Shown piece after piece: positions 3,001 through 57,831 of a DNA stretch of 64,000 bases (position 1 is the stretch's first letter; each line of letters starts with the position of its first letter). The position numbers were made by a program, and so were the translations under genes. This DNA comes from Labia minor (lineage: Eukaryota > Arthropoda > Insecta > Dermaptera > Spongiphoridae). The stretch is taken from the NCBI GenBank assembly GCA_963082975.1, contig OY720350.1, forward strand, positions 49,306,734-49,370,733, read 5' to 3'. The notes under the pieces are model-generated. The model was not told where the DNA came from and ran no database searches. It saw only the letters and a list, made by a program, of their open reading frames with translations.

Positions 3001-6000
3001 TACGTCAATAAGCTTGTGGACTCGGGTTCGATTCCTTTTATGGAGTCTGGAACGAGGTCCATCCATCCTAGGTTATCAAATTGGGTAACTATTTGAAGTA
3101 AAAAATAAAAAATAGTGGCCTACGACCAAGAAATTTAAGATAAATGTTGAGATAATCAGTTGTACTGATCATTTAACACTTCTACCCACTTAGGTGGCTA
3201 CCTTCTTGATAAGCGGTGTCCTTTCGAGAAGAACATTTTAAAAATTTAGAACATGTAAAAAGAAAATTGGAATCTCTAATATTTTATTTTTAATGAATAA
3301 GTTTATGTATTATAGTTTTTAAGCGAATAATTCCGTTTTCAATCCAACATTTTACTTGCTTTTTTATGCTTAAATATTCATATACAAAGATTATAATACT
3401 TAAATATGTAAATGAAAATAAAATTGATAGATAATTCTAATAAAAATGTTTGAAAAAAAGAACAATTTATATTCAACAAGAACACAATTGAATGTTAGGC
3501 CTCTGAAAATCATAAATTACATGCAAATGTTTCGGCGGATTAAAGTTTTATATCATCGTAATGTTGTATCATACTAGAGGAAGGGGATAAAAAAAAGGAG
3601 ATATTTGTAAGATACATGCAATATACAATACATAAAATTGAAAATATGACTAGCAGTAAAGAAACACATTTAAATATTTTTCTCAAATGCTAACACCTCA
3701 CAAAAACTTTTAAAGGCTATAACCAAAATATTTGTAAATTTTTCATAACAGCATTGTAATAAAAATGTCCACAATTTAAGTTTTGAGGGATAAAAGCGAG
3801 TATAACAAAAAATAAAATGCTCTTTATTTTATACTTTAAAAAGATTTATTTTCTAAGGACAACTTATACAGTTTTAAGAAAAAGTTGAAATTTAAAATGT
3901 CAACCTCCAAAATTTTTGTAGATTATTATATTAATAAAAATAAATATTTGATGTTAATTTTTTATATAAGAAAAAAATTAAACATATTTTTCTCCAATTT
4001 CCTCAAACCAGTATATATCTTAAATTTTTAGTGGTAGTAAAACTAGGGAGGGGAAGTACTTTCCATGGTAAAATTGTTATTATAAAATAATTGAAGAAAA
4101 GTTTTAAAAATGAATCTTTTTTAGATTTAGGAAAGTTAACGTTACAAGTTATAAGTAAAAAAAATTATAATATATATCAGGGGATTTTATAATAAAATAA
4201 AAATATACCGATATTGTTTTATTTGACTTTACCTCAGGCAAAGATCTTTTTAAAATCAATGTCGGTCTGTCTGCCTGTTGGGAATTTAAGTTAAAGTTAA
4301 ATTTTTTTAAAGTTTCCTCTCTGCTAAATGCAGTGATTTTTCGGCAAGGCTTTTAAGAAAATGTTTCAAAGTGAATTTTCTTATCAGCGGCTTTCTGGAT
4401 CATTGAGAGAGAGAGAGCGGAATGGTTTGGTAGTGGCGGAGGGGGTGGGGGTGTTATCTGTTTTATGACACTCACAGTCGGGTTGGCAGATAGCTGGGCG
4501 AATCGTCCTTGTTTTTCAGCAGCTCGTTGCATTTGTTGACGGTGTCAAAAAGGAGGAAAGTGTCACCGACGCTGAAGAGTGTTGCCAAACATCTGGCAAT
4601 CAGTTTCCTTGTGGGTGGTCCCGGCGACTCATGGATATGCCTGGTCAATTGTTCCACGAGTTTTTTCTGGCAGCCTTTGATGTCCGACTAATAAAAAATC
4701 AAATAAACACGAATTATTTAGATATAAATTAAATTAAATCTAAATTAGAAATCGAATCAATAACAAAAATGTGGATTAATTATTCTAATAAATATCATTG
4801 GAGGTGGCTTGGCCGAGAGTGTAGCGTGGCAACCTTCTACACGAGAAGTCTGCGTTCGATTCTAACCAAGAACGGATTTTTCTAATAAATTCAATTTAAC
4901 ATCAGCTGGTTCCAGGAACTGACTAGCCCTGGTTCTATACAACCCTGCACCAGCAGGACTACCTCAAAAACAAGCAACCATAAGCAACAATGGATCGTGG
5001 TGAGAATAACTCCAGGTGGTACCCAATCCACCCGTCACCTGGAGGTGGAGGATCCGGATCTTCATGAGCACACAAAAAAAGAAGAATAAAAGAACATTCA
5101 TATATGGGCACACTTAACATCAATACCCTTGTATATGGGAGCTTTGTGTGATCCTAGATGGTCCAGACGCAAATAATAATAATAATAATAAATATCATTA
5201 AGAAATAAACAAAGAAATGTTTATAAATATTACTGATTTTCTTTTGAATAACAAGATCACACTAATAACCAGGATTATTTTCTGTTTTTGGCATAACTTC
5301 AATACAAAAATCATCATATTCAATTACATTAATAATCAAATGGTTATTCACTAATTAATATATATATATATATATATCTTTGTGGTGCTAGTGGAGCCGA
5401 AAGTTCTTGGCCGCAGTAATCCAATTCCTCCAATCGTCCTGAGCCTACACTAATTCTCTACCAACTCCCTCACATCCCCTTTAAATTGTCTGCCCACAGC
5501 GTATTTGGTCCTCCAACTGTTGTTTCCTAATTGTTAACATCTAGGTATGGTCTATCTAATCTTTTCTAATCTATCTAATTACGTGTTACCATGCGATTTT
5601 ACAACAATAACTATGTTAAAAATGCCTACATATAATAGGTGTGTTTATATTATTTTTATTTTGGAAAAAAAATCCGTTTCCCATATATGTAGGGTGGAAA
5701 TTTAATTGTTATTTTAATCCTAAAAAGGCTATTGCATTAAATATTCTTTTAGGTTATAAGTAAGCTATGAAATGGACTAGAAAAATAGCCAAAAAATAGG
5801 CCATCAAATTGACAGTGATCAGTGGATCATAGTTAAATTATAATAAGATTACAGGAGGATATGATATAAAAGACAATTTTTGGGTTTAATATAGAAAGTC
5901 ATGATTTAATAAGATTATTTGATATTAAATTGTCTACTGAGATTCTATTATTACAAGCAACATTTACTAAAAAAAAAATTAAATATTTAAATATAATAAT

Positions 6001-7261
6001 TAAAGAAATTAATTTTGAAATACAAGGTGCGTTCCAAAGAAAGCAGAATTTTTTGAAAATGGTAACAAAGGGTTATTTTTTAACAAAACTCTCTTATTTT
6101 ATTCAAAATTGAGTGAGACTCTATACAGTGAAATGCACGGCCAAGAGGCAAGTCTAACGAGTGGTTTAGGTCATCTGTAGAGATGTTCTAGAAAATGTAG
6201 GTGCAAGGCATTTGGATGGGCTCTACATGACCATAACGGTTTCCTTCCAAATGTATTTTCCAAATAGGTAAAAATCACACGGTCTTAATTGAGGAAAATA
6301 CGACGAGTGGTTGATGGTTGAAATGGAATTTTTGGTCAAAAAACCAGTCACAAGAGTCGATCGATAATTGGCAGTAACTTCCTTATTCAAACGCTTCAAA
6401 ACTCCAGATCTTGGCTGATCTTTTATGAATTCAGGCACAGTTTTGAAGGCATCTTGTGTTATCACAAATTTCGATTGCTCAATACGTGGGTCATTTATGT
6501 CTTCACAACCATTCTTAAAGTGGACATACCACTCATGGACTAAGTTACGGGATAAACAATCATCACCATAAACTGGTTTCATCAATTGAAGCGTTTCGAT
6601 AAAAGTTTTACCAAGATTGTCATGTAACTTTAACAAAGGTCAAAGAAGGTGGTACCTTTCCAACTAAGGCAGTCATCTAGATTATGTTATTTTGAAAAAG
6701 TCCTGTTTTCTTTGGAACGCCTCTTGTATATGATTTTCCTTTTTTTTAATGAAACAGACAGAAAAACTTAGATATCAAATAAAAAATACGAATTTTTTTT
6801 TATTTTAAAACTTGATAAAATTTCCGAAAAAAATTTCAAGATTATTTAACGTTTTAATATTTTAAAGGAATAAAATATAGAGTTAGTTAATAAATTTAAA
6901 TGAAATATTATATATATATTAAGGAGTTGTAGTTTAGAACAGATTGGTGCGCATAAACTCTCTCTCTCTAAATATATATATATATATATATAATTTGTTC
7001 ATTCTTATTCATCTCTGCTACTATTTGTATTCCTAATAAAAAATTCATTAAACGAGTGTCTGGAGGAGTAAACGTGTCGCATAGGACAGCTAATTCACTA
7101 ACAAAATAAATCATTTAACATAGAAAATTTGATAAAACCATTCCTACCTCTACATTTAAGTTTAATAATAAACTTTCTGCCACTTTTGTTTCAACTTTCT
7201 AGTTTACACACTATACGAGTACTAAAATAAACTTCCCAATTTTTGATCTATATACATGGAA

Positions 7262-7304
<43 letters not shown>

Positions 7305-10300
7305 GTATAAGATTAATTTTTCTTTTGCATATTTAAAAAAAAAAGAATCTGTTTTTGTATTAAACTTTAAGAAGCTTAATTATGGAACTTTATCTAAACA
7401 AATAATCCTTTTAAATCTTGTAAATTTCAATTCAATGTTAATGGCCCAGTAGGGGATCAAAGGAATTTGAACGGCAATTTTATCCCAAAACTCCAAGAGC
7501 TTATTTCGATAGAGAAAGAAAAAGAAAAAAATATAATCACATCTCAACAAAATTTCTTATTAGATTAAAACAAATACAAGAGTAATCTATAAATTCAATT
7601 TAAAATAATTAAAATTAAATCAAATTAATGAAATAAGTATTTTTTCCGGGTTTCAGAAATCTTTGCTTATTTTAAATTTTAATAAATTCTTTAAAATGAA
7701 TAATAGATATAAATGACTTTTGTTTAATTAATTTAATTTGATCAGTGTGTTTGATGTAATTCTTCTTCATACACGCTTTTATACTTAGTTTCACATCGTG
7801 TCCTGTCGTCAAATCTTGCAAGAGGAATTTGACCCACTTCTCAATGTTCGAATGAGCTGAAATTTTGAATACATATGTAACTCCGATGTTAATGCAATAT
7901 TCAGGTTCATCCCAGGTCATAGGTGACCTCCGAGGTATTATTTTATAATAGAGAAAAACGCAAATTCTACTTCAAATAGACATAGTCAAGAAGTATAGTG
8001 GAAAAGGAAAAAAAAACACAGAAAGGGGTTTGTGCATATATAATGAAATGTCCATCGTATTCTTTTCCTTTCCCTGCATGTTTGGCGCCCATGCTTTCAT
8101 TTTTCAGATATGATTAATTGTAAGGAAATCGTGGTGGGTGTGGAGAAATTATTTTCTCCTTTTCAGTGCATTTAAATAAAAGCAGGTTTTTAAAAAGATT
8201 TTTTTTTATTTATTCAATGAATGAATATTATTATATTAGGTTGGGGAAAAAGAAATCCATTATTTTTTCGGTAGATAGCTGTAGTGATCGATATCTCGTA
8301 AATTATCGATCAAACAATTTCAAATTTATGCTCGTTGTCAAGGTAACAGTTCGCACTAAAAGAATTCGTTTGCAGTTTTTTGTTTTGTCCATTCAGTTCT
8401 GAGTTACACGGCGTTAAAGATGGAAGTCAACAAAGAGAAAATTCGGTACATTTTACAGTTTTTCTTTGATAAGGGCGAAAATGCAAGTCAGGCGGCTGAA
8501 AATGTGAATAGTGTTTATGGTCCCGATACTGTAACAGCTAATTACGCGCAATTTTGGTTTCGTCGATTCCGTTCGGGTATTTTTGACGTTAAGGATGCCC
8601 CTCGCACAGGCAGGCCCGTCGTCGAAAATGTCGACAAAGTCACTGAAATCATCGAAGTGAACCGGCATGTTAGTAGTCGTAGCATCGCCCAGGAGTTAAA
8701 GATCGACCACAAAACAGTTTTAAACCATTTGCACAAAGCTGGGTTTAAAAAAAGCTTGATGTTTGGGTGCCACACCAATTAACACCAAAAAACATGATGG
8801 ATCGAATTTCCATCTGCGAAGCCTTGGCCAAACGTAATGAAATCAACCCATTTCTTAAACGGATGGTGACTGGGGATGAGAAATGGGTCACATACGACAA
8901 CATTATGCGAAAGCGATCGTGGTCAAAGCGTGTTTTAGTGATAAGAAATTGGCATCAAGGGAAGAGTGTGAAAATCAATTGCTGGAGTTTTTCGCTAATA
9001 AGGACCAAGACTTTTATGAGAGAGGCATAATGAAGCTACCATTAAAATGGCAACAAATTATAGAACAAAATGGTGCATATTTGACCTAAATCGGACAATG
9101 CAAAACATGTTAAATAAAGTCTTGAAGTTCACGTAAAAATAATGGATTTCTTTTTCCCCAACCTATTATTATATTTAATTAACAATTGATAATTGATAAT
9201 TATGATTATTATATTAAACATACAGATTTACATTTGATTGATTATCTGTATTAAAATTAAATAAAAATTTATAATTAAAATTTGCAATATATTGAGCTAT
9301 AGACTTTGCTAAACTTTACGAATAATATTTATATCATTTAATGTTTACCCGAGCGGGTAGCGGGTAGATACCTTCTCACGATCCCGGTGAGAGACAGATC
9401 TACCTCAGTGAGTGGCGCCCACTGCCCTACGCGAGCACATGCATTTTCTCTCATTCCTCGACCAAGGGAGTGCATGCCCTACCCAAATCATCCATCCAGA
9501 CCCAATCCCCTTTATTTCCTCTTCCTTCTTTCCAATCCACGCGTCAGGCTGTAGCGACAGGCCGGCTGGATCATCTTCGCGTCGCATCAACAATTAATGG
9601 AGAAATGTTATACGGTTAACGGCTAGGGCGTCCCCTGCAAGCGACGCACATTGTCAGCACCCGGGCGATGTGAGAAATGGGTTAGGGTTACCCACCTATG
9701 GACGAGGTGGGCTAAAGAAGATAGTCCAACATCCACATCCACATCAATATCAACATCGACATCATCACCGACACGAACATCGTCACATCGGTCAGCATCA
9801 GCATCATTGCCATCAACCTCACTCAAATCGTCCACAGCTACATCAAAGTCGTCAACACCATCATCACCGTCATCGAAGGTTGAGTACCAAAGACCGCGTG
9901 GGAGGCCTAAAATCAGCTGGTCCTGCCGTATAACGGGAGATCTAATGGCATCTGGTCTCTCTACAGACGACGCCAACAACAGATTTAGTTGGCGCCAATT
10001 AACGAGAAGAGCCGACCCCACACCCCGTGGGAAATAAGGCTAAGAAGAAGAAGAATGTTTACCCGAGTTCGCTAGATGGCGTTGCGCGTGTGAAAAGTGT
10101 CCCGTGTAGGGACATGAAAAAGTCTAAAATCATATTTGAATTATCCAGATCATGAAACGTGAAGATATGCAAAAAATTTTAAATCCTAAGCAACCTTTAT
10201 ATAGATAGAAATTTTTGAAAAATCATCATCAAGATTGTCTAATAAGGAATTACAATAAATAGGTTCTATTCATCCAAATAGAGGTCTGTATGAGATCAAA

Positions 10301-13300
10301 AGACGATTTGGACTTTAAATTTAACTGAAATATTATCTTAAAGTTCTATTCTTATAAAAAAAACACCCCGCGTATTCTCTAAATCCACGTAACTATTATC
10401 TATCTCAACTATAATAACAATTGAGAAATATTTTCTTAAAGTAATTTTTGGAAAACTTTTTTCATAATAATATTATGATTACATTTTTATACAGAATTAT
10501 TTTCTCTTATATGATATTTAGTATTAAAGAGATTATAATTGTTGAAGAAAATAGGGAATTTCAACTTTTCAAATCATAATCATTGAAACTATTAATAACT
10601 TATAAATATCTTATTAGTATGACAAAAATGAAACAAAACTTTTCCCGCCTCGGCATTCAATTTGATAATATTATCAATTTAATGTCTTGCAATATTCTTT
10701 AATACACGAACTATAATACCAAAGAGACGTTTCTTCTATTAAATTATTTCTATATTCCATCAAGACTAAAATATAATAATAATATCCATCCTTTACAGAT
10801 AAAGTTGATTGCATTTATTAGAAATAGATTTAAATGAAAATGAACGTAGGGGGGGGTTTGAATATTTTGAATCAGTTTTGTATTTTTAAGAAATAAGTAT
10901 TGTTTTTTTATTGGACTTGAAATTTATATTTTTAAATAAATATAATTTTCCTTTTTTTTTTAAATTTCAAAAAAATCCAAAAAAAAACAAAAAAAAAACA
11001 GGATTATTATTTCTAAAGTAGAGAGTCTTTCTCATTTATAAATTGAATTTCTTCTTTTTTTCTCCTCCTCCAAAACGTTCTTATATTCCAAACACATTTC
11101 CTTTTGTTTCTGAAATTCTTTTAGCAAAATAGAAAAAAAAAAAAATTCTCTGAATTATGCATTAAGAATGGGGGAGGCGAATTGAGTATCCTCCGACCCT
11201 CTGTTCCCCCCCCCCCACCAAACGAAGGCTGCATTATGAATGGATGTGTGGCTACCGATATTTTACCAGCCTCTGAACACCACCGCCACCATCCGAGCAA
11301 GTCCTGTGGGAATTCAATCCTTGAATAAATGAAGATGTGCAAGAAGCTGCGTGATAAATTGACAGGGGGTGTTAAGTTCTAAGCACTCGGAAGAGTTAAC
11401 GAGAAAATCAGCTATTGACAGCCTATAAATGATCATCATTCTATTGGAAAGGATGAAACAAATTTTTAAAAATATAAGTCTGATTTGATAAAACTAAACA
11501 ATTTTTGAAATATTCCCACACAAAAATAAATAATCCCATCTTTTGATTAACCATTGAAAGAGCTCAAAAATTTTTACCAAAATATTATTGTTAATAAATC
11601 TTTACAAATTTACTTAATACTACCTCAAACAGTACTGTGAGGTTCTTGCGCCTGGGGGCAACTGAGAAATTAGCGCCCCCTTTCTTAATTTAATTTTTTT
11701 TTTAAAGAATATTAATGACGAATAACGAAACAGGTTTAACAGATTTTAATAAGCGTATAAATAATATTTATTGCCTTACACAAAAAAATACAGTTTAACT
11801 TTAAATATTAATTCTTCTTTTGTTCCAAATTGGCTTCCCTAATTTTGCGCCCCCTAAATTTGGCGCCCTGCTCCCCTCAAACTAAACTTTTATTTCTTGT
11901 TTTTTTTCATTAATCTTCTCATATAATCCAATTTTAAGAATTTTTCATTGATCAAACAATAGATTAAAGTGGACGTATGGTTAGTCATCAGATGGAACAT
12001 TAATCCTTATTGAATGAACCATTTCTCTTCTAGATAACTTCCTTTTTCCTTTTAAACGAATTTCAGTAATCAAATAGAAACCAGATAAAAGTTATATTAT
12101 TGAGAAAATGTGATATTTAAACAATTTACAATTTTAGGATTTATTTTTATTTTCAATATAATACTTAATTATAAACAAAATCCATGAATTATTATTATTA
12201 TTTAAACTTTAAAATTTAAAGTACACAATTTATTAAATAACATATACTAATATATTGTTTTAATTGTTCTCACTTTGTTCAGTGAAAATTTATTATATCT
12301 ATTAGAGCAGTGGTTCTTAAACTGTGGTCCGCGGACCCCTGGGGGTCCGCGAAGCCTTTACTGGGGGTCCGCGGTCCTCGGAAAAAAATCATCGTAAAAA
12401 TATATACATATATAAATATTTAAAGTTCATTGTGTAACTATATCCTCCTAGAGAATTACGGCTATAATTTAATACTATTAATAATACTATTTTATTTTAT
12501 TAAATTGATAATTATGTCAATTAATTTTTTGTGAATAAATAAACATATATAAAAAACTATATATAAAATTTGAATTTTCATCCATTCATTCATTTAAAAT
12601 CATTTTTCGATTGTTCCTTTAAAATAACCCCTCTTAGGGGCTCGGAAGGGGAGGCATATAAGGGAATTTTCTTTCACTTTGTTATTGGGGAAAACCAGAG
12701 GAGGGGACAGTCTTACCCGGAAAAACCCAAATTGTCAGCGTCCACTCTGGGGTTTTAAACAGTTTTAAAGCAAATGTTAATTATAAGTTCATTTCTCAAC
12801 GAGTTGTATCTTTAAATTATTTTTATTAATGTTAATTATAAGTTCATTTCTCAACGAGTTGTATCTTTAAATTATTTTTATTAATTTAATTAATTATAAT
12901 TAAATTATAGCTAATAATAGTTTATTATAGCTAATAATTTTTTTTAATTTTTAGTGTAATTTGCATGATCATTATTTTATAAAAACACTAAACACATTTT
13001 GCAATTTCCCAGAAAGGCTGTTTTTGAGAGTAAGTATAAGTTAGTTTTATGAATAAAAAATATTTATTTTAATAATATTTTAGAATCAAATTACGAAATT
13101 AATAATATTTTAGAATCAAATTACGAAATTAATAATATTTTAGAATCAAATTACGAAATATATTTATTATATAAATTAATATTCATTTAAAATGATATTA
13201 AATCATTTATTTAAAATGATTTAAAACATTTATTAAAATGATTTAAAACATTCATTTAAAATGATATTAAAACATTCATTTAAAATCATATTAAAACATA

Positions 13301-16300
13301 GCTAGTAAATAATAATTCGTTATATTTATATTATATTTATATTATATTTATATTATTGTAGTTCAATGTTAATAAATTACTCCATAAAATGGATCGTTGG
13401 CTACAAACTGGTTCAACACAGAAACGGAAAGAATCAGATGATGAGGCATCAACAGCAAACTCTACCAAGAAACGCAAAACTAGAAAATATTCGGATGATT
13501 ATTTATCATTTGGATTTACTTATATTTGCAACAATGATGTGGAAAGACCAGTCTGCGTTCTATGTCAGGAAAGTTTATCCAATGAAAGTATGAAACCTGC
13601 TAATCTCAGACGTCATTTACAAACAAAGCACAGCGAGCATGTTAGTAAGTCTATCGAATTTTTTAAAATGAAAAAAGAAGAACTTAATTCAAGTCAGAAA
13701 TTGATGGTAAAGACGGGATCTGGTGGTATGAGTAAGAAAGCAGTAATGGCATCATATGAAGTAGCTCTACTTATTGCTAAAGCAGGAAAGCCGCATAATA
13801 TAGCAGAGCAATTAATTCTTCCTGCTACAAAAGTAATTACAAATATAATGTTAGGAACTAAAGCAGCAAACGATATAAATTTGATTTCATTATCAAATGA
13901 TACGGTTAAGAATAGGATTGAAGACATGTCATGTAATATAAAAGAAGAATTAATATCGAGAGTGCGCAAAAGTCACTATTACTCATTACAATTGGATGAA
14001 AGTACTGATGTCACTAATAATGCCAATTTGTTAGCTTTCATTAGATATGAGTTTGAAAATCAAATACAAGAAGATGTATTGTTTTGTGATTCACTACCTT
14101 CACGAACGACAGCTAATGACATATTTAACAGTTTGAATAATTTTATAACCGAAAATGAAATAGAGTGGCCAAAATGTGTTGGAATTTGCACTGATGGTGC
14201 TCGTGCAATGTCAGGTACAAGAACTGGATTGATTTCTCTTATTAAAAATGTTGCGCCTCAGGTTGTTTGGAATCATTGCTGCATTCACAGAGAATCATTA
14301 GCAGCCAAAAATATGTCACCAGATTTGAAAAGAACATTAGACGAAGTAGTTAAAATTGTCAATTTCATTAAGGCTCGTCCACTTAATTCCAGAGTTTTTA
14401 AAATTTTGTGTGAGGAAATGGGTAGTCAACATACACATTTATTATTACATACAGATGTACGTTGGTTGTCCCGCGGGAAAGTACTCATTCGCCTTTTTGA
14501 GCTTCGAGATGAAATACGATTGTTTTTAATAGATGCGCATTTTGAACTGACCGAATGTTTCAATGATTTTATCTGGTTAGCTAAGGTGGCTTACTTGACT
14601 GATATTTTTACAAAATTGAACGAACTTAATTTGAGCCTGCAAGGTACTGTTGTAAATATATTTAAAGTTGAAGATAAAATAGAAGCAATGATTAAAAAAA
14701 TCGACTTGTGGTCGAAACGCATCCAGAACGGTGTATATGAGTCTTTTCCAACTCTCAATGATTTCATAGAAAGCTCCAGTGAAAAATTGCTTAATCAAAC
14801 GCGTCAATTATTTGTTGAACATTTAATTACTTTGAAAAGCAACTTCAGGAAGTATTTTTCTACTCCTGATCCTTGCAATAACTGGATCAGAGATCCATTT
14901 AATATGGAAATTACAAATACTAAACATTTATCTGCACCTGAACAAGATATTCTCGTGGAATTATCATGTGATACAACTTATAAACTAAAATTTAACAAAA
15001 CTGAATTGAGCAACTTTTGGTTACTTCTCAGGTCAGATTATCCTGCGCTTGCAAATAAAGCACTTCAACACTTGATTCCATTCTGCACAACATATTTATG
15101 CGAACAAGCTTTTTCGGTACTATTTTATATTAAGTCTAAATATAGAAACAAATTAAATGTAGAGCCGGATCTTAGATTAAAAGTTTCCAATATTAAGCCA
15201 GATATTGAGATTCTTGTTTCAAGAAAACAACTGCATACATCTCATTAAATATGTAAGTTATATTTAATGAGATAGATGCAGTTATTTTTTAAAATATTTC
15301 TTATTTAATATTTTCTGAAAAAAATTATAAAATATTTATATGAATTTAATGTAAGTACCCATTATAATTTGTGAGATTTGTTGCTATGACAATGTTTGTA
15401 TTTTCTTTCTTCAATATTATAATTTCTAATAAAATGTGTTCTACAATATGCAAAAAAATCGTTATTCACCAATCACTGTTAGAAATATTCATCATATATC
15501 CTTGTCCTTATGAGATCGTAAGCCAGAAATTAATTAATAAAATGACGTAAAGTACCTAAAGTTGTGATGGGGGTCCGTCAAAAAAAATTTTTTCAAGTGG
15601 GGGTCCGTGGAGTACATAAGTTTAAGAACCTATGTATTAGAGTGTTTTACTTTAATGATATTAAGAAAGCAGACTGACTAACTAACATGTCTTTTTTTTT
15701 TTATTCAAGAAAACACCTTTTTGTTTCATGAAATTAAATTATTAATACTCCAGTAATTTTAAAGTTGAAACTTTTGAAATAAAAACAATTATATAAACAA
15801 ATTTAATAGGAAAAGATTTTGTTTGCCTAAAGAATGAAATTCCACCAAATGCTAGATCTGTATTGGTTTCAGTCTGGAGAAAAATCATTTTTTTTTTAGA
15901 TTTTTCTTAATTGAAGTTTATCATAAATGACGTCCATATTGAAATTTGCCACTTGCCAATTTTGTTTTTATTAATTGATATTGTATTAATATTTTTTTTA
16001 TATTTAAAATATTTTTAAATTTATTATTTAATTTCGAAATAAAATTAAAAATATTTATTTAAATAAAATATATTTATTAATCTCTCAAAAACAAATACGC
16101 TTGGTAATTGTCTTGCAAACATTGTAAGTATTGTCATTTTGTTTTCTCTAAAATATTTGAGATCAGCAGTGTAGCCGCGGGGTTTAGTCCTGGTCCGCCG
16201 AATCGAGTTCGGGAAATCGAACCTCGGCAATTGCATAAGCCAAAAACAAGAAAAAAAAAATTAAGTTTTTTAATATGTTTTGTCGTTTAATTTTTTGTTA

Positions 16301-16922
16301 ATTCTTATAAATTTGTATTAGTTAATTTTATGTTATTTTTTTTTATCTATTTTCGTGTTTATTTTTTTATTAAATTACTAATTTATATTTATTTATACAT
16401 TGTTCTTTTATTAATTAATTTTTAGATAGTTTTATAATTTTTAATATTTTTTCCGCTAAAATATAATTTATTATTATTTATTATTATTGAGGACCCCATG
16501 TTCCATTCATTTTAATCGGATTAATGCAATGATGTAACATTTAATAATTGTAATAAATAATCAAAGAATTGTATATCAATTGTATATATTGATTAAAAGG
16601 TCAAGCGATAGATCGGTGTTCCAGATACTACAGATATTATCATGAAAATATCAGATGATATGAAATTTTTTTGATCTTAAGATATTATATTTTTTATTAT
16701 CTATAAATACAGTTTTTCGTTAAAAAAATAAATAAGAAAACTTATAAATTTATTTAATATTATATGTTAAGGTTTGATACCTTTTGAGCAGCGATGAGAA
16801 CTTTGTCAAGAAATCGCAGCCATTCAAAAACGAACATGGGCCGTTTGGCCTCGGGTATTTGTGCAAGTGCCTCTTCATTGAGGGTCAAACTGTGGCTCAA
16901 CTCCATCATGGTGGCCACTGGC
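1..16922 (-). CDS. HEATR5B: HEATR5 (HEATR5B-type), N-terminal part, six coding exons
   Basis: Large HEAT-repeat protein of the HEATR5/Laa1 family. Vertebrate HEATR5B works with aftiphilin and gamma-synergin in AP-1/clathrin traffic at the trans-Golgi and endosomes (family knowledge). Coding exons on the minus strand are 16922-16781, 4687-4476, 2577-2319, 2175-1995, 800-640 and 81-1. All junctions are GT/AG and phases agree, giving 341 codons from the first ATG to the window edge. The translation follows the human protein from its N-terminus: [92 protein letters not shown] and [17 protein letters not shown]. Human HEATR5B is about 2,070 residues, so roughly one sixth is here; the rest lies left of base 1. 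Introns of 12.1, 1.9, 0.14, 1.2 and 0.56 kb hold many transposons. The A/B paralogue split is a vertebrate matter, so 'HEATR5' is the safer name. Confidence 0.94.
82..639 (-). other. HEATR5 intron 5, unique A+T-rich
   Basis: 558-bp intron with poly-T and poly-A runs. I see no repeat family, ORF or RNA gene in it. Confidence 0.7.
640..800 (-). other. HEATR5B: HEATR5 coding exon 5
   Basis: Encodes [20 protein letters not shown], then [17 protein letters not shown] and [11 protein letters not shown]. This is one of the best conserved blocks of the family (human ATGFLRGGSGFLKSGGEM). The acceptor is tttttcag. The donor gttagt is weaker than the others but is fixed by the next exon starting AYVVFV. 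Confidence 0.94.
801..1994 (-). other. HEATR5 intron 4, carrying a family A element
   Basis: 1.19-kb intron. Half of it is the family A insertion at 1215-1816; the rest is plain A+T-rich sequence. Confidence 0.75.
1215..1816 (+). mobile_element. Family A element, copy 1
   Basis: About 600 bp. It starts AAGTTGACCTGTGGCC-like with the hairpin GACCTG/CAGGTC, followed by ACCGACCGACGG, and ends CGTCGGTCGGT-like, so a short inverted repeat lies at or near both ends. Inside are two TGACGTCA palindromes, a (GGAC)n tract and an internal direct repeat of ~85 bp. Other copies are at 21751, 29111, 34337 and 45935. The class is not proven; the layout resembles non-autonomous Helentron (HINE/DINE-1-like) elements. 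Confidence 0.75.
1995..2175 (-). other. HEATR5B: HEATR5 coding exon 4
   Basis: Encodes [20 protein letters not shown] through [19 protein letters not shown], matching human [20 protein letters not shown]. It is separated from exon 3 by only 143 bp. It starts in phase 0 and ends after one base (G) of a Val codon; donor gtaaca. Confidence 0.93.
2319..2577 (-). other. HEATR5B: HEATR5 coding exon 3
   Basis: Begins [18 protein letters not shown] and ends [10 protein letters not shown]; donor gtaaga, acceptor tatttag. It corresponds to the human stretch YEKMGRML...[21 protein letters not shown]. Together with exon 4 it makes helical HEAT repeats. Confidence 0.94.
2578..4475 (-). other. HEATR5 intron 2
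   Basis: 1.9-kb intron. Apart from the old SINE at 2972-3245 it holds A+T-rich unique sequence and a short (GA)n tract near 4405 followed by a G-rich run just downstream of the exon 2 donor. Confidence 0.7.
2972..3245 (+). mobile_element. Old tRNA-derived SINE, related to the SINE at 36.57 and 56.53 kb
   Basis: A polymerase III B-box-like GGTTCGATTC lies at 3025-3034 within a tRNA-like head. The body shares with the two younger SINEs a central block (cgaccaagaaatttaag, then gttgagat and actgatcat) and a 3' part with cttgataagcg and tgtccttt. It is much more diverged than those copies. Confidence 0.55.
4476..4687 (-). other. HEATR5B: HEATR5 coding exon 2
   Basis: Encodes [18 protein letters not shown] through [11 protein letters not shown]. 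The acceptor is ttattag and the donor is gtgagt. It enters in phase 0 and leaves after two bases of the Leu codon. The match to human [12 protein letters not shown]...PGPPTRKL is unmistakable. Confidence 0.94.
4800..5185 (+). mobile_element. tRNA-derived SINE with 14-bp target duplication
   Basis: The head GGAGGTGGCTTGGCCGAGAG followed by B-box-like GTTCGATTC resembles a class II (Leu/Ser) tRNA. The ~390-bp element ends in (AAT)n. Perfect direct repeats taataaatatcatt lie at 4786-4799 and 5186-5199. It sits in HEATR5 intron 1. Confidence 0.75.
5385..5560 (-). pseudogene. LINE reverse-transcriptase C-terminal fragment
   Basis: Minus-strand frames give [21 protein letters not shown] and then [15 protein letters not shown]. 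This tail pattern (GRPxxRW...DR..W...) is typical of non-LTR retrotransposon ORF2 ends. Stops and a frame change show it is dead. Related tails occur at 32.1, 33.0 and 62.8 kb. Confidence 0.6.
6023..6726 (-). mobile_element. Mariner-like transposon, internally deleted
   Basis: Flanked by TA. The ~40-bp inverted ends are CAAGGTGCGTTCCAAAGAAA and CAAGAGGCGTTCCAAAGAAA. The minus strand (6636-6223) reads an N-terminal DNA-binding part ([28 protein letters not shown]) joined to a C-terminal piece [13 protein letters not shown] that matches the mariner catalytic PDLAPCDFxLF block. At 704 bp against ~1.3 kb for a full mariner, the centre is missing. Non-autonomous. Confidence 0.8.
6961..7304. repeat. 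(TC)n and (TA)n microsatellites
   Basis: Two similar compound tracts, (TC)n then (TA)n, at 6961-6992 and 7263-7304. The ~270 bp between is unique A+T-rich sequence. Confidence 0.8.
7672..7920 (-). CDS. Unrecognised 82-codon ORF in HEATR5 intron 1
   Basis: Starts [20 protein letters not shown] and ends in an A+T-rich stretch. I do not recognise it. The first ~55 residues have balanced composition ([20 protein letters not shown], then IKACMKKNY) and the DNA is noticeably less A+T-rich than its surroundings, unlike the low-complexity shadow ORFs nearby. It lies on the same strand as HEATR5. It could be a gene fragment, an exon of an unknown gene, or part of an uncharacterised transposon. Confidence 0.25.
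   Translation of the reverse strand: MTWDEPEYCINIGVTYVFKISAHSNIEKWVKFLLQDLTTGHDVKLSIKACMKKNYIKHTDQIKLIKQKSFISIIHFKEFIKI
8239..9163 (+). mobile_element. Mariner transposon (MEVNKEK... type) with internal deletion
   Basis: Flanked by TA (8237-8238 and 9164-9165). The ~30-bp inverted ends GGTTGGGGAAAAAGAAATCC are nearly identical at both sides. Length is 925 bp against ~1.3 kb for a full element, so the middle of the transposase gene is gone. It sits in HEATR5 intron 1 on the opposite strand. The near-perfect ends suggest a fairly recent insertion. Confidence 0.92.
8420..9089 (+). pseudogene. Mariner transposase remnant
   Basis: The N-terminal 112 or so residues ([15 protein letters not shown], then [20 protein letters not shown]) carry the paired helix-turn-helix DNA-binding domain in one frame to ~8756. 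A +1 shift in an A run near 8750 moves the rest, [20 protein letters not shown] through [20 protein letters not shown], into the next frame, so the first catalytic Asp (GDEKW) is present. After RKRSWSK the sequence jumps to [20 protein letters not shown] and ends [13 protein letters not shown]. The second and third catalytic Asp blocks are deleted, so it cannot be active. Confidence 0.9.
9354..10053 (+). mobile_element. Retroposon with LINE-type 3' end and 14-bp target duplication
   Basis: Direct repeats aatgtttacccgag at 9340-9353 and 10054-10067 bracket 700 bp ending in (AAG)n. A frame open from 9651 to 10037 ends [11 protein letters not shown] and [15 protein letters not shown], the usual C-terminal pattern of a LINE reverse transcriptase, preceded by a Ser/Thr-rich stretch encoded by a (CATCGA)-like repeat. 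The G+C-rich first 300 bp are not recognisable RT. It is either a 5'-truncated LINE or a chimeric SINE using a LINE tail. The perfect target repeats argue for a young insertion. Confidence 0.75.
10110..10207 (-). mobile_element. Helitron 5'-end fragment
   Basis: Reading the minus strand, tctatatAAAGG-type start then AAATTTTTTGCATATCTTCA and CGTTTCATGATC match the first ~100 bp of the Helitron at 31119. The rest of the element is missing. Confidence 0.5.
10208..11630. other. HEATR5 intron 1, mostly unique
   Basis: A+T-rich, with a G-run at 10850, poly-A/T at 10955-11005 and a less A+T-rich block at 11160-11330 (poly-C tract, then CACCACCGCCACCATCC) that matches no repeat in the window. No gene is supported. 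Confidence 0.6.
11631..11874. mobile_element. Small hAT-like MITE
   Basis: An 8-bp direct repeat cctcaaac at 11623-11630 and 11875-11882 brackets 244 bp with G+C-rich ends carrying GCGCC motifs (TTGCGCCTGGGGGC at the left, TTTGGCGCCCTGC at the right). The 8-bp duplication suggests hAT; the inverted ends are only partly alike. Confidence 0.45.
12774..12885. repeat. 55-bp tandem duplication in the hAT 5' region
   Basis: Two copies, effectively identical, period 55, starting ATGTTAATTATAAGTTCATT at 12774 and 12829. Confidence 0.9.
13070..13159. repeat. Three 30-bp tandem repeats upstream of the hAT transposase
   Basis: Period 30, unit beginning taataatattttagaatcaa, at 13070, 13100 and 13130. 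It is followed by loosely repeated ATTCATTTAAAATGAT units up to ~13290 and (TATATT)n to 13355. Subterminal repeat arrays of this kind can bind hAT transposase; that is inference. Confidence 0.85.
13389..15248 (+). CDS. hAT transposase, 619 aa, intact
   Basis: Cut-and-paste transposase of the hAT superfamily, in the group that gave rise to vertebrate ZBED5/SCAND3/FAM200-like proteins. A BED-type zinc finger is visible as C56-x2-C59 with H76 and H81. The RNase H-like core shows D203 in [13 protein letters not shown]269 in ICTDGARAM, and CCIHRESLA around 297-305. [20 protein letters not shown] (355-374) is a hallmark of this group. The C-terminal dimerisation region includes LCEQAFSVL (570-578) with the presumed catalytic Glu E572. 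The length is normal and no stop or shift is seen. The ATG at 13389 is chosen because MDRWLQTGS is a typical start for this family. Confidence 0.93.
   Translation: MDRWLQTGSTQKRKESDDEASTANSTKKRKTRKYSDDYLSFGFTYICNNDVERPVCVLCQESLSNESMKPANLRRHLQTKHSEHVSKSIEFFKMKKEELNSSQKLMVKTGSGGMSKKAVMASYEVALLIAKAGKPHNIAEQLILPATKVITNIMLGTKAANDINLISLSNDTVKNRIEDMSCNIKEELISRVRKSHYYSLQLDESTDVTNNANLLAFIRYEFENQIQEDVLFCDSLPSRTTANDIFNSLNNFITENEIEWPKCVGICTDGARAMSGTRTGLISLIKNVAPQVVWNHCCIHRESLAAKNMSPDLKRTLDEVVKIVNFIKARPLNSRVFKILCEEMGSQHTHLLLHTDVRWLSRGKVLIRLFELRDEIRLFLIDAHFELTECFNDFIWLAKVAYLTDIFTKLNELNLSLQGTVVNIFKVEDKIEAMIKKIDLWSKRIQNGVYESFPTLNDFIESSSEKLLNQTRQLFVEHLITLKSNFRKYFSTPDPCNNWIRDPFNMEITNTKHLSAPEQDILVELSCDTTYKLKFNKTELSNFWLLLRSDYPALANKALQHLIPFCTTYLCEQAFSVLFYIKSKYRNKLNVEPDLRLKVSNIKPDIEILVSRKQLHTSH
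15643..16780. other. HEATR5 intron 1, 5' part
   Basis: Very A+T-rich. A short G+C-richer piece at 16150-16245 has, on the minus strand, a B-box-like GAGGTTCGATTTCC, possibly a decayed SINE head. Nothing else is seen. Confidence 0.5.
16781..16922 (-). other. HEATR5B: HEATR5 coding exon 1 (start codon exon)
   Basis: The start lies in GCCACCATGATGG, an excellent initiation context; ATG codons at 16909-16907 and 16906-16904 are adjacent, and the second matches the human Met. The exon encodes 43 residues ending [11 protein letters not shown]. The donor after AAG is gtatca. A pyrimidine-rich tract ending in cag sits just before 16922, so this is an internal exon with 13 non-conserved bases before the ATG. 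At least one more upstream exon must lie to the right. Confidence 0.93.
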
Positions 16923-57444: not shown

Positions 57445-57831
57445 CAGTCTTTCCCAAACTCTTTTGGTCCAATTCATAGTTAAAACTTGCCCACGGACCC
57501 CCTTTCATAGTAAAAATATCTTTTCCACGAACCCTGAGTGAAAAAAACACGCTCGACTCACCAAAGTGCTGTCATGGAAAAGAAAGAGAAGCTCGGTTAA
57601 TTCGAGCGTGGTTTTCGAACGTTACCTTATAACTTGTATTTTATGCACCTATCTAAATTCATAATTTGCTTAGGACGTAAAAATTACTAACAATTATACA
57701 ATGTTATTTATTTTTTTATTAAACCTCGCGCGGACCCCCTGATGTTGTTCAGGGACCCTAATTTTCCAAGGCCCCCCTGAATAATCTCAGGGACCCCTTG
57801 GGGTCCGCATGGATCACTTTGGGGACCAGTG
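57445..57831. mobile_element. hAT MITE, 387 bp
   Basis: Ends CAGTCTTTCCCAAACTCTTT and, inverted, CACTGGTCCCCAAAGTGATC. Target repeats are ctctaaac and ctctaaaa. GGGGTCCGC and CGGACCCC motifs near the ends resemble those of the intact hAT at 12308, though terminal sequences differ. Confidence 0.7.

What the first reader, a model, noticed from the sequence alone, without database searches (positions are those of the whole stretch)
12308..15634. Intact, probably young hAT transposon inside a HEATR5 intron
All parts of an autonomous hAT are visible: perfect 8-bp target duplication tattagag, matching inverted ends, subterminal GGGGTCCGYG repeats, and an unbroken 619-codon transposase with BED finger, DDE-type residues and CEQAF region. 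Almost every other DNA transposon in the window is deleted or broken, so this one stands out as a source element.
Basis: partly seen in the sequence, partly recalled or inferred. Interest (0 to 1): 0.7.

Follow-up and report, generated by a model that had tools for sequence, protein, structure and literature searches.

The report
Very young, multiplying hAT jumping gene
The window holds one of roughly 1,560 almost identical and mostly complete copies of a cut-and-paste jumping gene that has spread through this genome so recently that it may still be moving.

Summary
Window 12308-15634 is a complete 3,327-bp hAT element with a perfect 8-bp target duplication and a 619-aa transposase frame. It lies antisense in the 12-kb intron after HEATR5 coding exon 1.

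The whole genome (604 Mb, unnamed) decides the question of youth. Exact 32-mers count 1,555 left ends, 1,580 ORF starts and 1,567 catalytic (CEQAFS) regions. Three mismatches add only 19 to the last. In samples listed in genome order, 81 of 97 left ends belong to 3.2-3.45-kb copies with both ends, and 85 of 99 ORF starts show no net indel over 1.7 kb.

All 30 target 8-mers of such a sample have a central TA (nnnTAnnn, as published for TcBuster). Paralogous empty sites exist. The window copy's Ser283 occurs in one other copy, at another site, so its own sub-lineage has moved. A homogeneous 442-bp MITE with related ends expanded too.

Verdict: a recent, possibly ongoing burst of an autonomous Buster-type hAT, a new member of a known kind. 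Transcription, polymorphism and horizontal origin were not testable.

The parts
12300..12307 (.). left target site duplication TATTAGAG
   Evidence: sequence; TA at positions 4-5 as in 30 of 30 genome-order copies
12308..12323 (+). left terminal inverted repeat, CAGTGGTTCTTAAACT
   Evidence: the 32-bp left end has 1,555 exact matches in the genome
12330..12373 (.). left subterminal GGGGTCCGYG repeats: one on the - strand at 12330-12339, two on the + strand at 12342-12351 and 12364-12373
12773..13356 (+). leader with tandem arrays: 55 bp x 2.2, 30 bp x 3.0, 24 bp x 5.1, 11 bp x 3.4; length varies between copies
   Evidence: leader length differs from the window copy in 55 of 93 paired copies, 17 by -30 and 5 by +30 bp
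13389..15248 (+). transposase ORF, 619 aa
   Evidence: 40 of 40 best-matching copies have a 619-aa frame; 1,580 exact ORF-start matches
13554..13631 (+). BED-type zinc finger, C56-C59-H76-H81
   Evidence: (below cut-off)
13995..13997 (+). D203, first catalytic Asp
   Evidence: aligned with L089, a Hermes relative
14193..14195 (+). D269, probable second catalytic Asp (TDGA)
   Evidence: for the position; one residue off in the alignment; assignment recalled
14235..14237 (+). codon 283, Ser here and Ala in 37 of 39 equal-length copies
   Evidence: the Ser 32-mer has 2 exact matches in the genome
15102..15104 (+). E572, catalytic Glu in CEQAFS
   Evidence: 1,567 exact matches to the surrounding 32-mer
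15570..15609 (+). right subterminal repeats, GGGGTCCG at 15570 and GGGGTCCGTG at 15600
15619..15634 (-). right terminal inverted repeat
   Evidence: 2,313 matches at up to 3 mismatches to the 32-bp right end
15635..15642 (.). right target site duplication TATTAGAG
4688..16777 (-). host intron of HEATR5 between coding exons 1 and 2 (ends taken from the protein alignment; splice sites not fixed)
   Evidence: with a recalled HEATR5B peptide

Best explanation
The element is one copy of an autonomous hAT transposon of the Buster type that is in, or has only just finished, a large burst in this genome. The single-exon transposase is expected to bind the GGGGTCCG subterminal repeats through its BED finger, cut the element out with its D-D-E active site and reinsert it at nnnTAnnn sites, making an 8-bp duplication. 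Copy number would rise because excision is tied to replication or is followed by gap repair from a remaining copy (recalled hAT biology). Shown here: complete anatomy, about 1,560 near-identical copies at dispersed sites, TA-centred 8-bp duplications, paralogous empty sites, mostly indel-free frames, nested sub-lineages (the window copy's own among them) that moved after acquiring new mutations, and a homogeneous 442-bp MITE with related ends. Inferred: transcription, present-day activity, mobilisation of the MITE by this transposase, and a recent start from one or few founders.
For: Exact left ends 1,555, ORF starts 1,580, CEQAFS region 1,567, each 0 in the reversed control. Only 19 more CEQAFS matches at up to 3 mismatches of 32. 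In genome-order samples 81 of 97 left ends belong to 3,200-3,450-bp copies with both ends and CEQAFS, and 85 of 99 ORF starts have the exact 1,707-bp spacing to CEQAFS. 40 of 40 best-matching copies have a 619-aa frame and 38 of 40 exact duplications. TA core in 30 of 30 left 8-mers. Spanning paralogous empty sites for 9 of 40 copies. 392A in 9 copies and Ser283 in 2, the latter two identical over 3,327 bp at different sites.
Against: No transcript, protein or polymorphism data. 14 of 99 sampled ORF starts lack the exact spacing (11 altered spacing, 3 without an exact CEQAFS match, one of these only a substitution in the motif). L015 and L029 have imperfect duplications. No empty allele of the window site is in this assembly. 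The pure homogeneity would also arise from a burst that has already stopped. Placement in the Buster family rests on the target site, not on a tree.
Confidence: 0.9

Rival explanations
1. The burst has ended: the copies are young but the family is now silenced or otherwise inactive.
For: Homogeneity dates the copies but does not show movement today; no RNA or population data; 14 of 99 sampled frames already lack the exact spacing.
Against: Very low divergence (19 of 1,586 copies changed in 32 bases), mostly intact frames and a two-copy sub-lineage at the tip of the genealogy.
Confidence: 0.3
2. These copies were moved in trans by the transposase of another hAT family; this ORF is a passenger.
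For: The genome gives 3,604 first-look candidates for the hAT dimerisation domain, and a MITE with related ends from another lineage multiplied too.
Against: A passenger has no need to keep its frame, yet 40 of 40 best copies and 85 of 99 sampled spacings are intact; passenger amplification usually favours short deleted forms (recalled), while 81 of 97 are full length. The youth of the family limits how far frame integrity argues.
Confidence: 0.07
3. The ORF is a domesticated host gene kept in the HEATR5 intron by selection.
Against: About 1,560 copies with both ends and own duplications; all 11 coding variants are replacements.
Confidence: 0.01
4. The multiplicity is an assembly artefact or segmental duplication.
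For: None seen.
Against: Each copy has its own duplication; the window flank is unique; the 40 best copies lie on seven large contigs, and 100 left ends on C1 are spaced like a random scatter, coefficient of variation 1.06.
Confidence: 0.01

Closest known systems
Buster family of hAT transposons; active member TcBuster of Tribolium (PMC3499496, passages)
   Same: 8-bp duplications of the form nnnTAnnn; BED finger, D-D-E residues, autonomous single transposase gene (family features partly recalled)
   Different: About 1,560 near-identical copies here; no tree was built and no TcBuster sequence was compared, so kinship beyond the target site is untested
Hermes (Ac family; PDB 2bw3, 4d1q, 8edg, seen)
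   Same: Catalytic and structural residues traced through the local hAT L089
   Different: No direct match to any solved chain at E up to 10; the Ac-type target consensus differs (recalled)
[quoted passage not shown]
   Same: A recently spread hAT with very low divergence, and a derived non-autonomous element in one fish
   Different: Described there as low in quantity in turtles and as horizontally transferred; here copy number is high and the origin untested
Recent mariner burst of Rhodnius prolixus (PMC4678618, abstract and passages)
   Same: Explosive recent expansion of one DNA transposon family in an insect, more than 8,000 copies
   Different: Tc1/mariner superfamily, not hAT; deleted copies there are scattered and did not form a true MITE family

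Membership tests
hAT superfamily | 8-bp target site duplication | tested here: met
   8/8 at the window; 38 of 40 best-matching copies exact, L029 7/8, L015 5/8
hAT superfamily | short terminal inverted repeats of about 15 bp beginning CA | tested here: met
   16-bp ends
hAT superfamily | BED-type zinc finger in the transposase | tested here: inconclusive
   ligands C56, C59, H76, H81 align with L089; Pfam zf-BED E 0.0074, below the cut-off
hAT superfamily | D-D-E triad with C..H and RW residues | tested here: inconclusive
   D203, C297, H300, R358, W359, E572 align with the Hermes relative L089; D269 is one residue off
hAT superfamily | C-terminal dimerisation region | tested here: inconclusive
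   Pfam PF05699 E 8.5e-4, 19.5 bits against a cut-off of 21.4
Buster family | target consensus nnnTAnnn | tested here: met
   TA at positions 4-5 in 30 of 30 genome-order copies and 18 of 18 MITEs; TA frequency in the window is 0.112
Buster family | transposase falls in the Buster clade of a tree | not tested
   no reference transposases of that family were at hand
Active autonomous transposon | near-identical copies and paralogous empty sites | tested here: met
Active autonomous transposon | expressed, catalytically competent transposase; insertions polymorphic between individuals | not testable with these tools
   no RNA, no other individuals, no bench
Domesticated hAT gene (ZBED-like) | single or few copies without transposon ends | tested here: not met
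   about 1,560 copies, 87 of 97 with both the CEQAFS motif and an exact right end

The most novel reading that the evidence does not exclude
This is among the largest and youngest bursts of an intact autonomous hAT known: more than a thousand potentially coding copies that arose within about 1e5 generations and are still spreading, with a cross-mobilised MITE of a sister lineage multiplying beside them. The quick length changes of the leader arrays and the reassorted variants among copies would record gap repair at each move. It would offer a natural system in which host silencing has not yet caught up with an invading hAT.
Probability: 0.35. Interest if true: 0.65.

Novelty: new member of a known kind. 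Interest (0 to 1): 0.5.

Why it matters
DNA-transposon bursts are mostly seen after the fact, as decayed or internally deleted copies (recalled). Here about 0.86% of a 604-Mb genome (1,567 x 3,327 bp = 5.2 Mb if all were full length) is made of almost unmutated, mostly full-length copies. That makes copy genealogy, target choice, gap repair, MITE hitch-hiking and the onset of silencing directly measurable. It also supplies a natural, apparently intact Buster-type element; TcBuster of that family has been tested as a gene-transfer tool (PMC3499496, passages).

Tried and rejected
Target consensus: from the 40 best-matching copies I first read NNTTAGAG. That was ascertainment, because the query contained the window's own duplication and so favoured copies with similar sites. 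The 30 copies taken in genome order show only the TA core with weak T2 (18 of 30) and A7 (17 of 30), so I dropped the TTAGAG claim. For the same reason I make no hotspot claim for repeats hit more than once (L011, L012, L030, L037 at one point; L027 and L029 at another).

My notebook says 12 coding variants; the table shows 11 in the ORF and 12 outside it, and the report uses 11.

In one search some MITEs were aligned in the wrong orientation, giving false counts of 243-244 differences; redid them oriented.

Searches without a result: relatives in viral contigs by protein and by end sequences (98, 99), phages, prokaryote genomes (10), PDB for the transposase (6), PADLOC. The joined window flanks found no empty allele (86). 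Structure prediction never ran: busy in 33, 45 and 53, switched off at 58, not asked again.
Full report
Observation. It spans 12308-15634 (3,327 bp) between two identical TATTAGAG duplications, with 16-bp terminal repeats, subterminal GGGGTCCG motifs and a 619-aa frame, the only frame of 150 aa or more in the window. Chance is excluded for the frame (about 3e-25). Pfam recognises a hAT dimerisation region and a BED finger only below their cut-offs, and no solved chain matches the protein. I therefore aligned it with L089, another hAT transposase of the same genome that matches Hermes at E 5e-27. The BED ligands, D203, C297/H300, R358-W359 and E572 line up; D269 is one residue off.

Place. A recalled HEATR5B peptide finds six collinear exons on the minus strand. 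The element lies antisense in the intron between coding exon 1 (16778-16906) and exon 2 (4475-4687).

Copy number and age. The genome is 604.5 Mb in 71 contigs, unnamed. A DNA search reported 1,024 first-look candidates and scored 40, all at 100% (rounded) identity over essentially full length. Pattern counts cover the whole genome and do not depend on a ranking: exact left end 1,555, ORF start 1,580, CEQAFS region 1,567, each with 0 for the reversed control. Allowing three mismatches raises the CEQAFS count to 1,586. So 19 of 1,586 copies (1.2%) are changed in 32 bases, about 0.037% per base, and there is no older layer within 3 of 32 mismatches in that stretch; more diverged relatives would be missed. 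With a recalled insect mutation rate near 3e-9 per base and generation this is of the order of 1e5 generations or fewer (inference).

Structure of genome-order samples. Each pattern search listed 100 places, all on contig C1; I kept those below 40 Mb (97 left ends, 99 ORF starts; 3 and 1 dropped). Of 97 left ends, 92 have an exact CEQAFS motif downstream in the right orientation, 89 an exact right end, 87 both, and 81 of these are 3,200-3,450 bp long; 31 of the 97 measure exactly 3,327 bp. One of the five without the motif is a full-length copy with a substitution inside it (L029/L058). Of 99 ORF starts, 96 have CEQAFS downstream and 85 have exactly the window's 1,707-bp spacing. Allowing for the expected share of stop mutations gives about 83% intact frames (an estimate). 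The leader is less stable: its length differs from the window copy in 55 of the 93 left ends that could be paired with an ORF start, 17 of them by -30 bp and 5 by +30 bp, the unit of a tandem array. The first 1,532 bp were read for 30 copies: 0-3 substitutions where alignable; of 28 with an ORF start, 27 are open as far as visible (8-261 codons) and one is frameshifted (L063); L064 is a MITE; L046, L047, L052 and L054 carry larger changes. One of the 30 (L058) is the same insertion as L029.

Best-matching copies. Of the 40 highest-scoring copies (L001-L040, L001 being the window itself), 39 are 3,327 bp, 40 have a 619-aa frame, and 38 have exact duplications; L029 has 7 of 8 and L015 5 of 8. 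Among the 39 equal-length copies the mean difference from the majority is 1.26 bases (0.038%); there are 23 haplotypes, the commonest in 11 copies. Of 23 variable sites 11 are in the ORF and all 11 are replacements; with 20.5% of possible changes synonymous that has a chance of about 8% without selection, so it shows neither constraint nor a firm excess. Site pairs 127/911, 127/2597, 127/2612 and 911/2612 occur in all four combinations, which suggests exchange between copies, though repeated mutation is not excluded. This sample is ranked by likeness to the window copy.

Movement. Three lines show transposition rather than duplication of large segments. First, all 30 left 8-mers of the genome-order sample have TA at positions 4-5, where the window's TA frequency is 0.112. 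Second, for 9 of 40 copies a flank-to-flank query without the element finds related, unoccupied repeats across the junction, several of them elsewhere in this window. Third, a variant of the window copy, 392A, has 9 exact matches genome-wide, and a second, 1928T (Ala283 to Ser), has exactly two, the window and C9:7.02 Mb (copies with a further change in the 32-mer would be missed). Those two are identical over 3,327 bp but have different duplications, so this sub-lineage moved after the Ser change arose. Whether the Ser protein or a relative's protein did the work is unknown.

A partner. At up to three mismatches the left end has 3,019 matches and the right end 2,313. At least part of the surplus is a 442-bp MITE: its first 65 bp match 64/65 and its last 212 bp 95% (201/212), and its middle is unrelated and resembles the remnant of another hAT frame (the resemblance is my reading). 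Its search gave 1,148 first-look candidates, 40 scored. All 18 copies read have exact TA-centred duplications and 0-8 differences from their majority. Two of them (L064, L071) carry the autonomous element's first 65 bp without change. Mobilisation by this transposase is likely but inferred.

What it is not. The copy number and ends exclude a lone relic and argue strongly against a domesticated gene; different duplications and a unique window flank argue against an assembly artefact. It is also not shown to be 'the' source: it is one copy of about 1,560 and departs from the commonest sequence at two sites.

Literature. TcBuster's nnnTAnnn is stated in PMC3499496 (passages). ZBED5's Buster kinship is in PMC3606216 (passages). 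A recent hAT spread, low in quantity in turtles, is PMC11008031 (abstract and passages). A larger mariner burst in an insect is PMC4678618 (abstract and passages). Seven answered searches of the library listed no paper that I recognised as reporting a hAT burst of more than a thousand intact autonomous copies.

Verdict. A new member of a known kind, unusual in scale, youth and intactness, and a good natural system for questions about transposon invasion. Interest 0.5.

Noticed in passing
window 57445-57831: A 387-bp non-autonomous hAT-like element of another family, with GGGGTCCG-type motifs, CAGTCTTTCCCAAACTC at one end and 7 of 8 matching flanks CTCTAAAC / CTCTAAAA (read).
   Followed up: partly
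   Followed up: partly
L031, right flank: The element's right duplication abuts CATAGGTTCCCAAACT..., which looks like the end of another hAT, so it may have inserted into that element's target duplication.
   Followed up: no
L015: Duplication only 5 of 8; its left flank lies in a shared repeat and its right flank does not match that repeat, as if two copies had recombined.
   Followed up: no
L078, L079, L080, L083: Four of 18 MITE copies share the same duplication TAATAGGA, perhaps one repeated target or a nested, co-amplified insertion.
   Followed up: no
L089 (G000 C2:72055050-72057000): A second, Hermes-related hAT transposase with an open frame of over 600 aa; the genome gave 3,604 first-look candidates for the hAT dimerisation domain, 150 scored.
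   Followed up: partly
L064 and L071: MITE copies whose first 65 bp equal the autonomous element while the rest follows a MITE subfamily, a possible hybrid by gap repair.
   Followed up: partly
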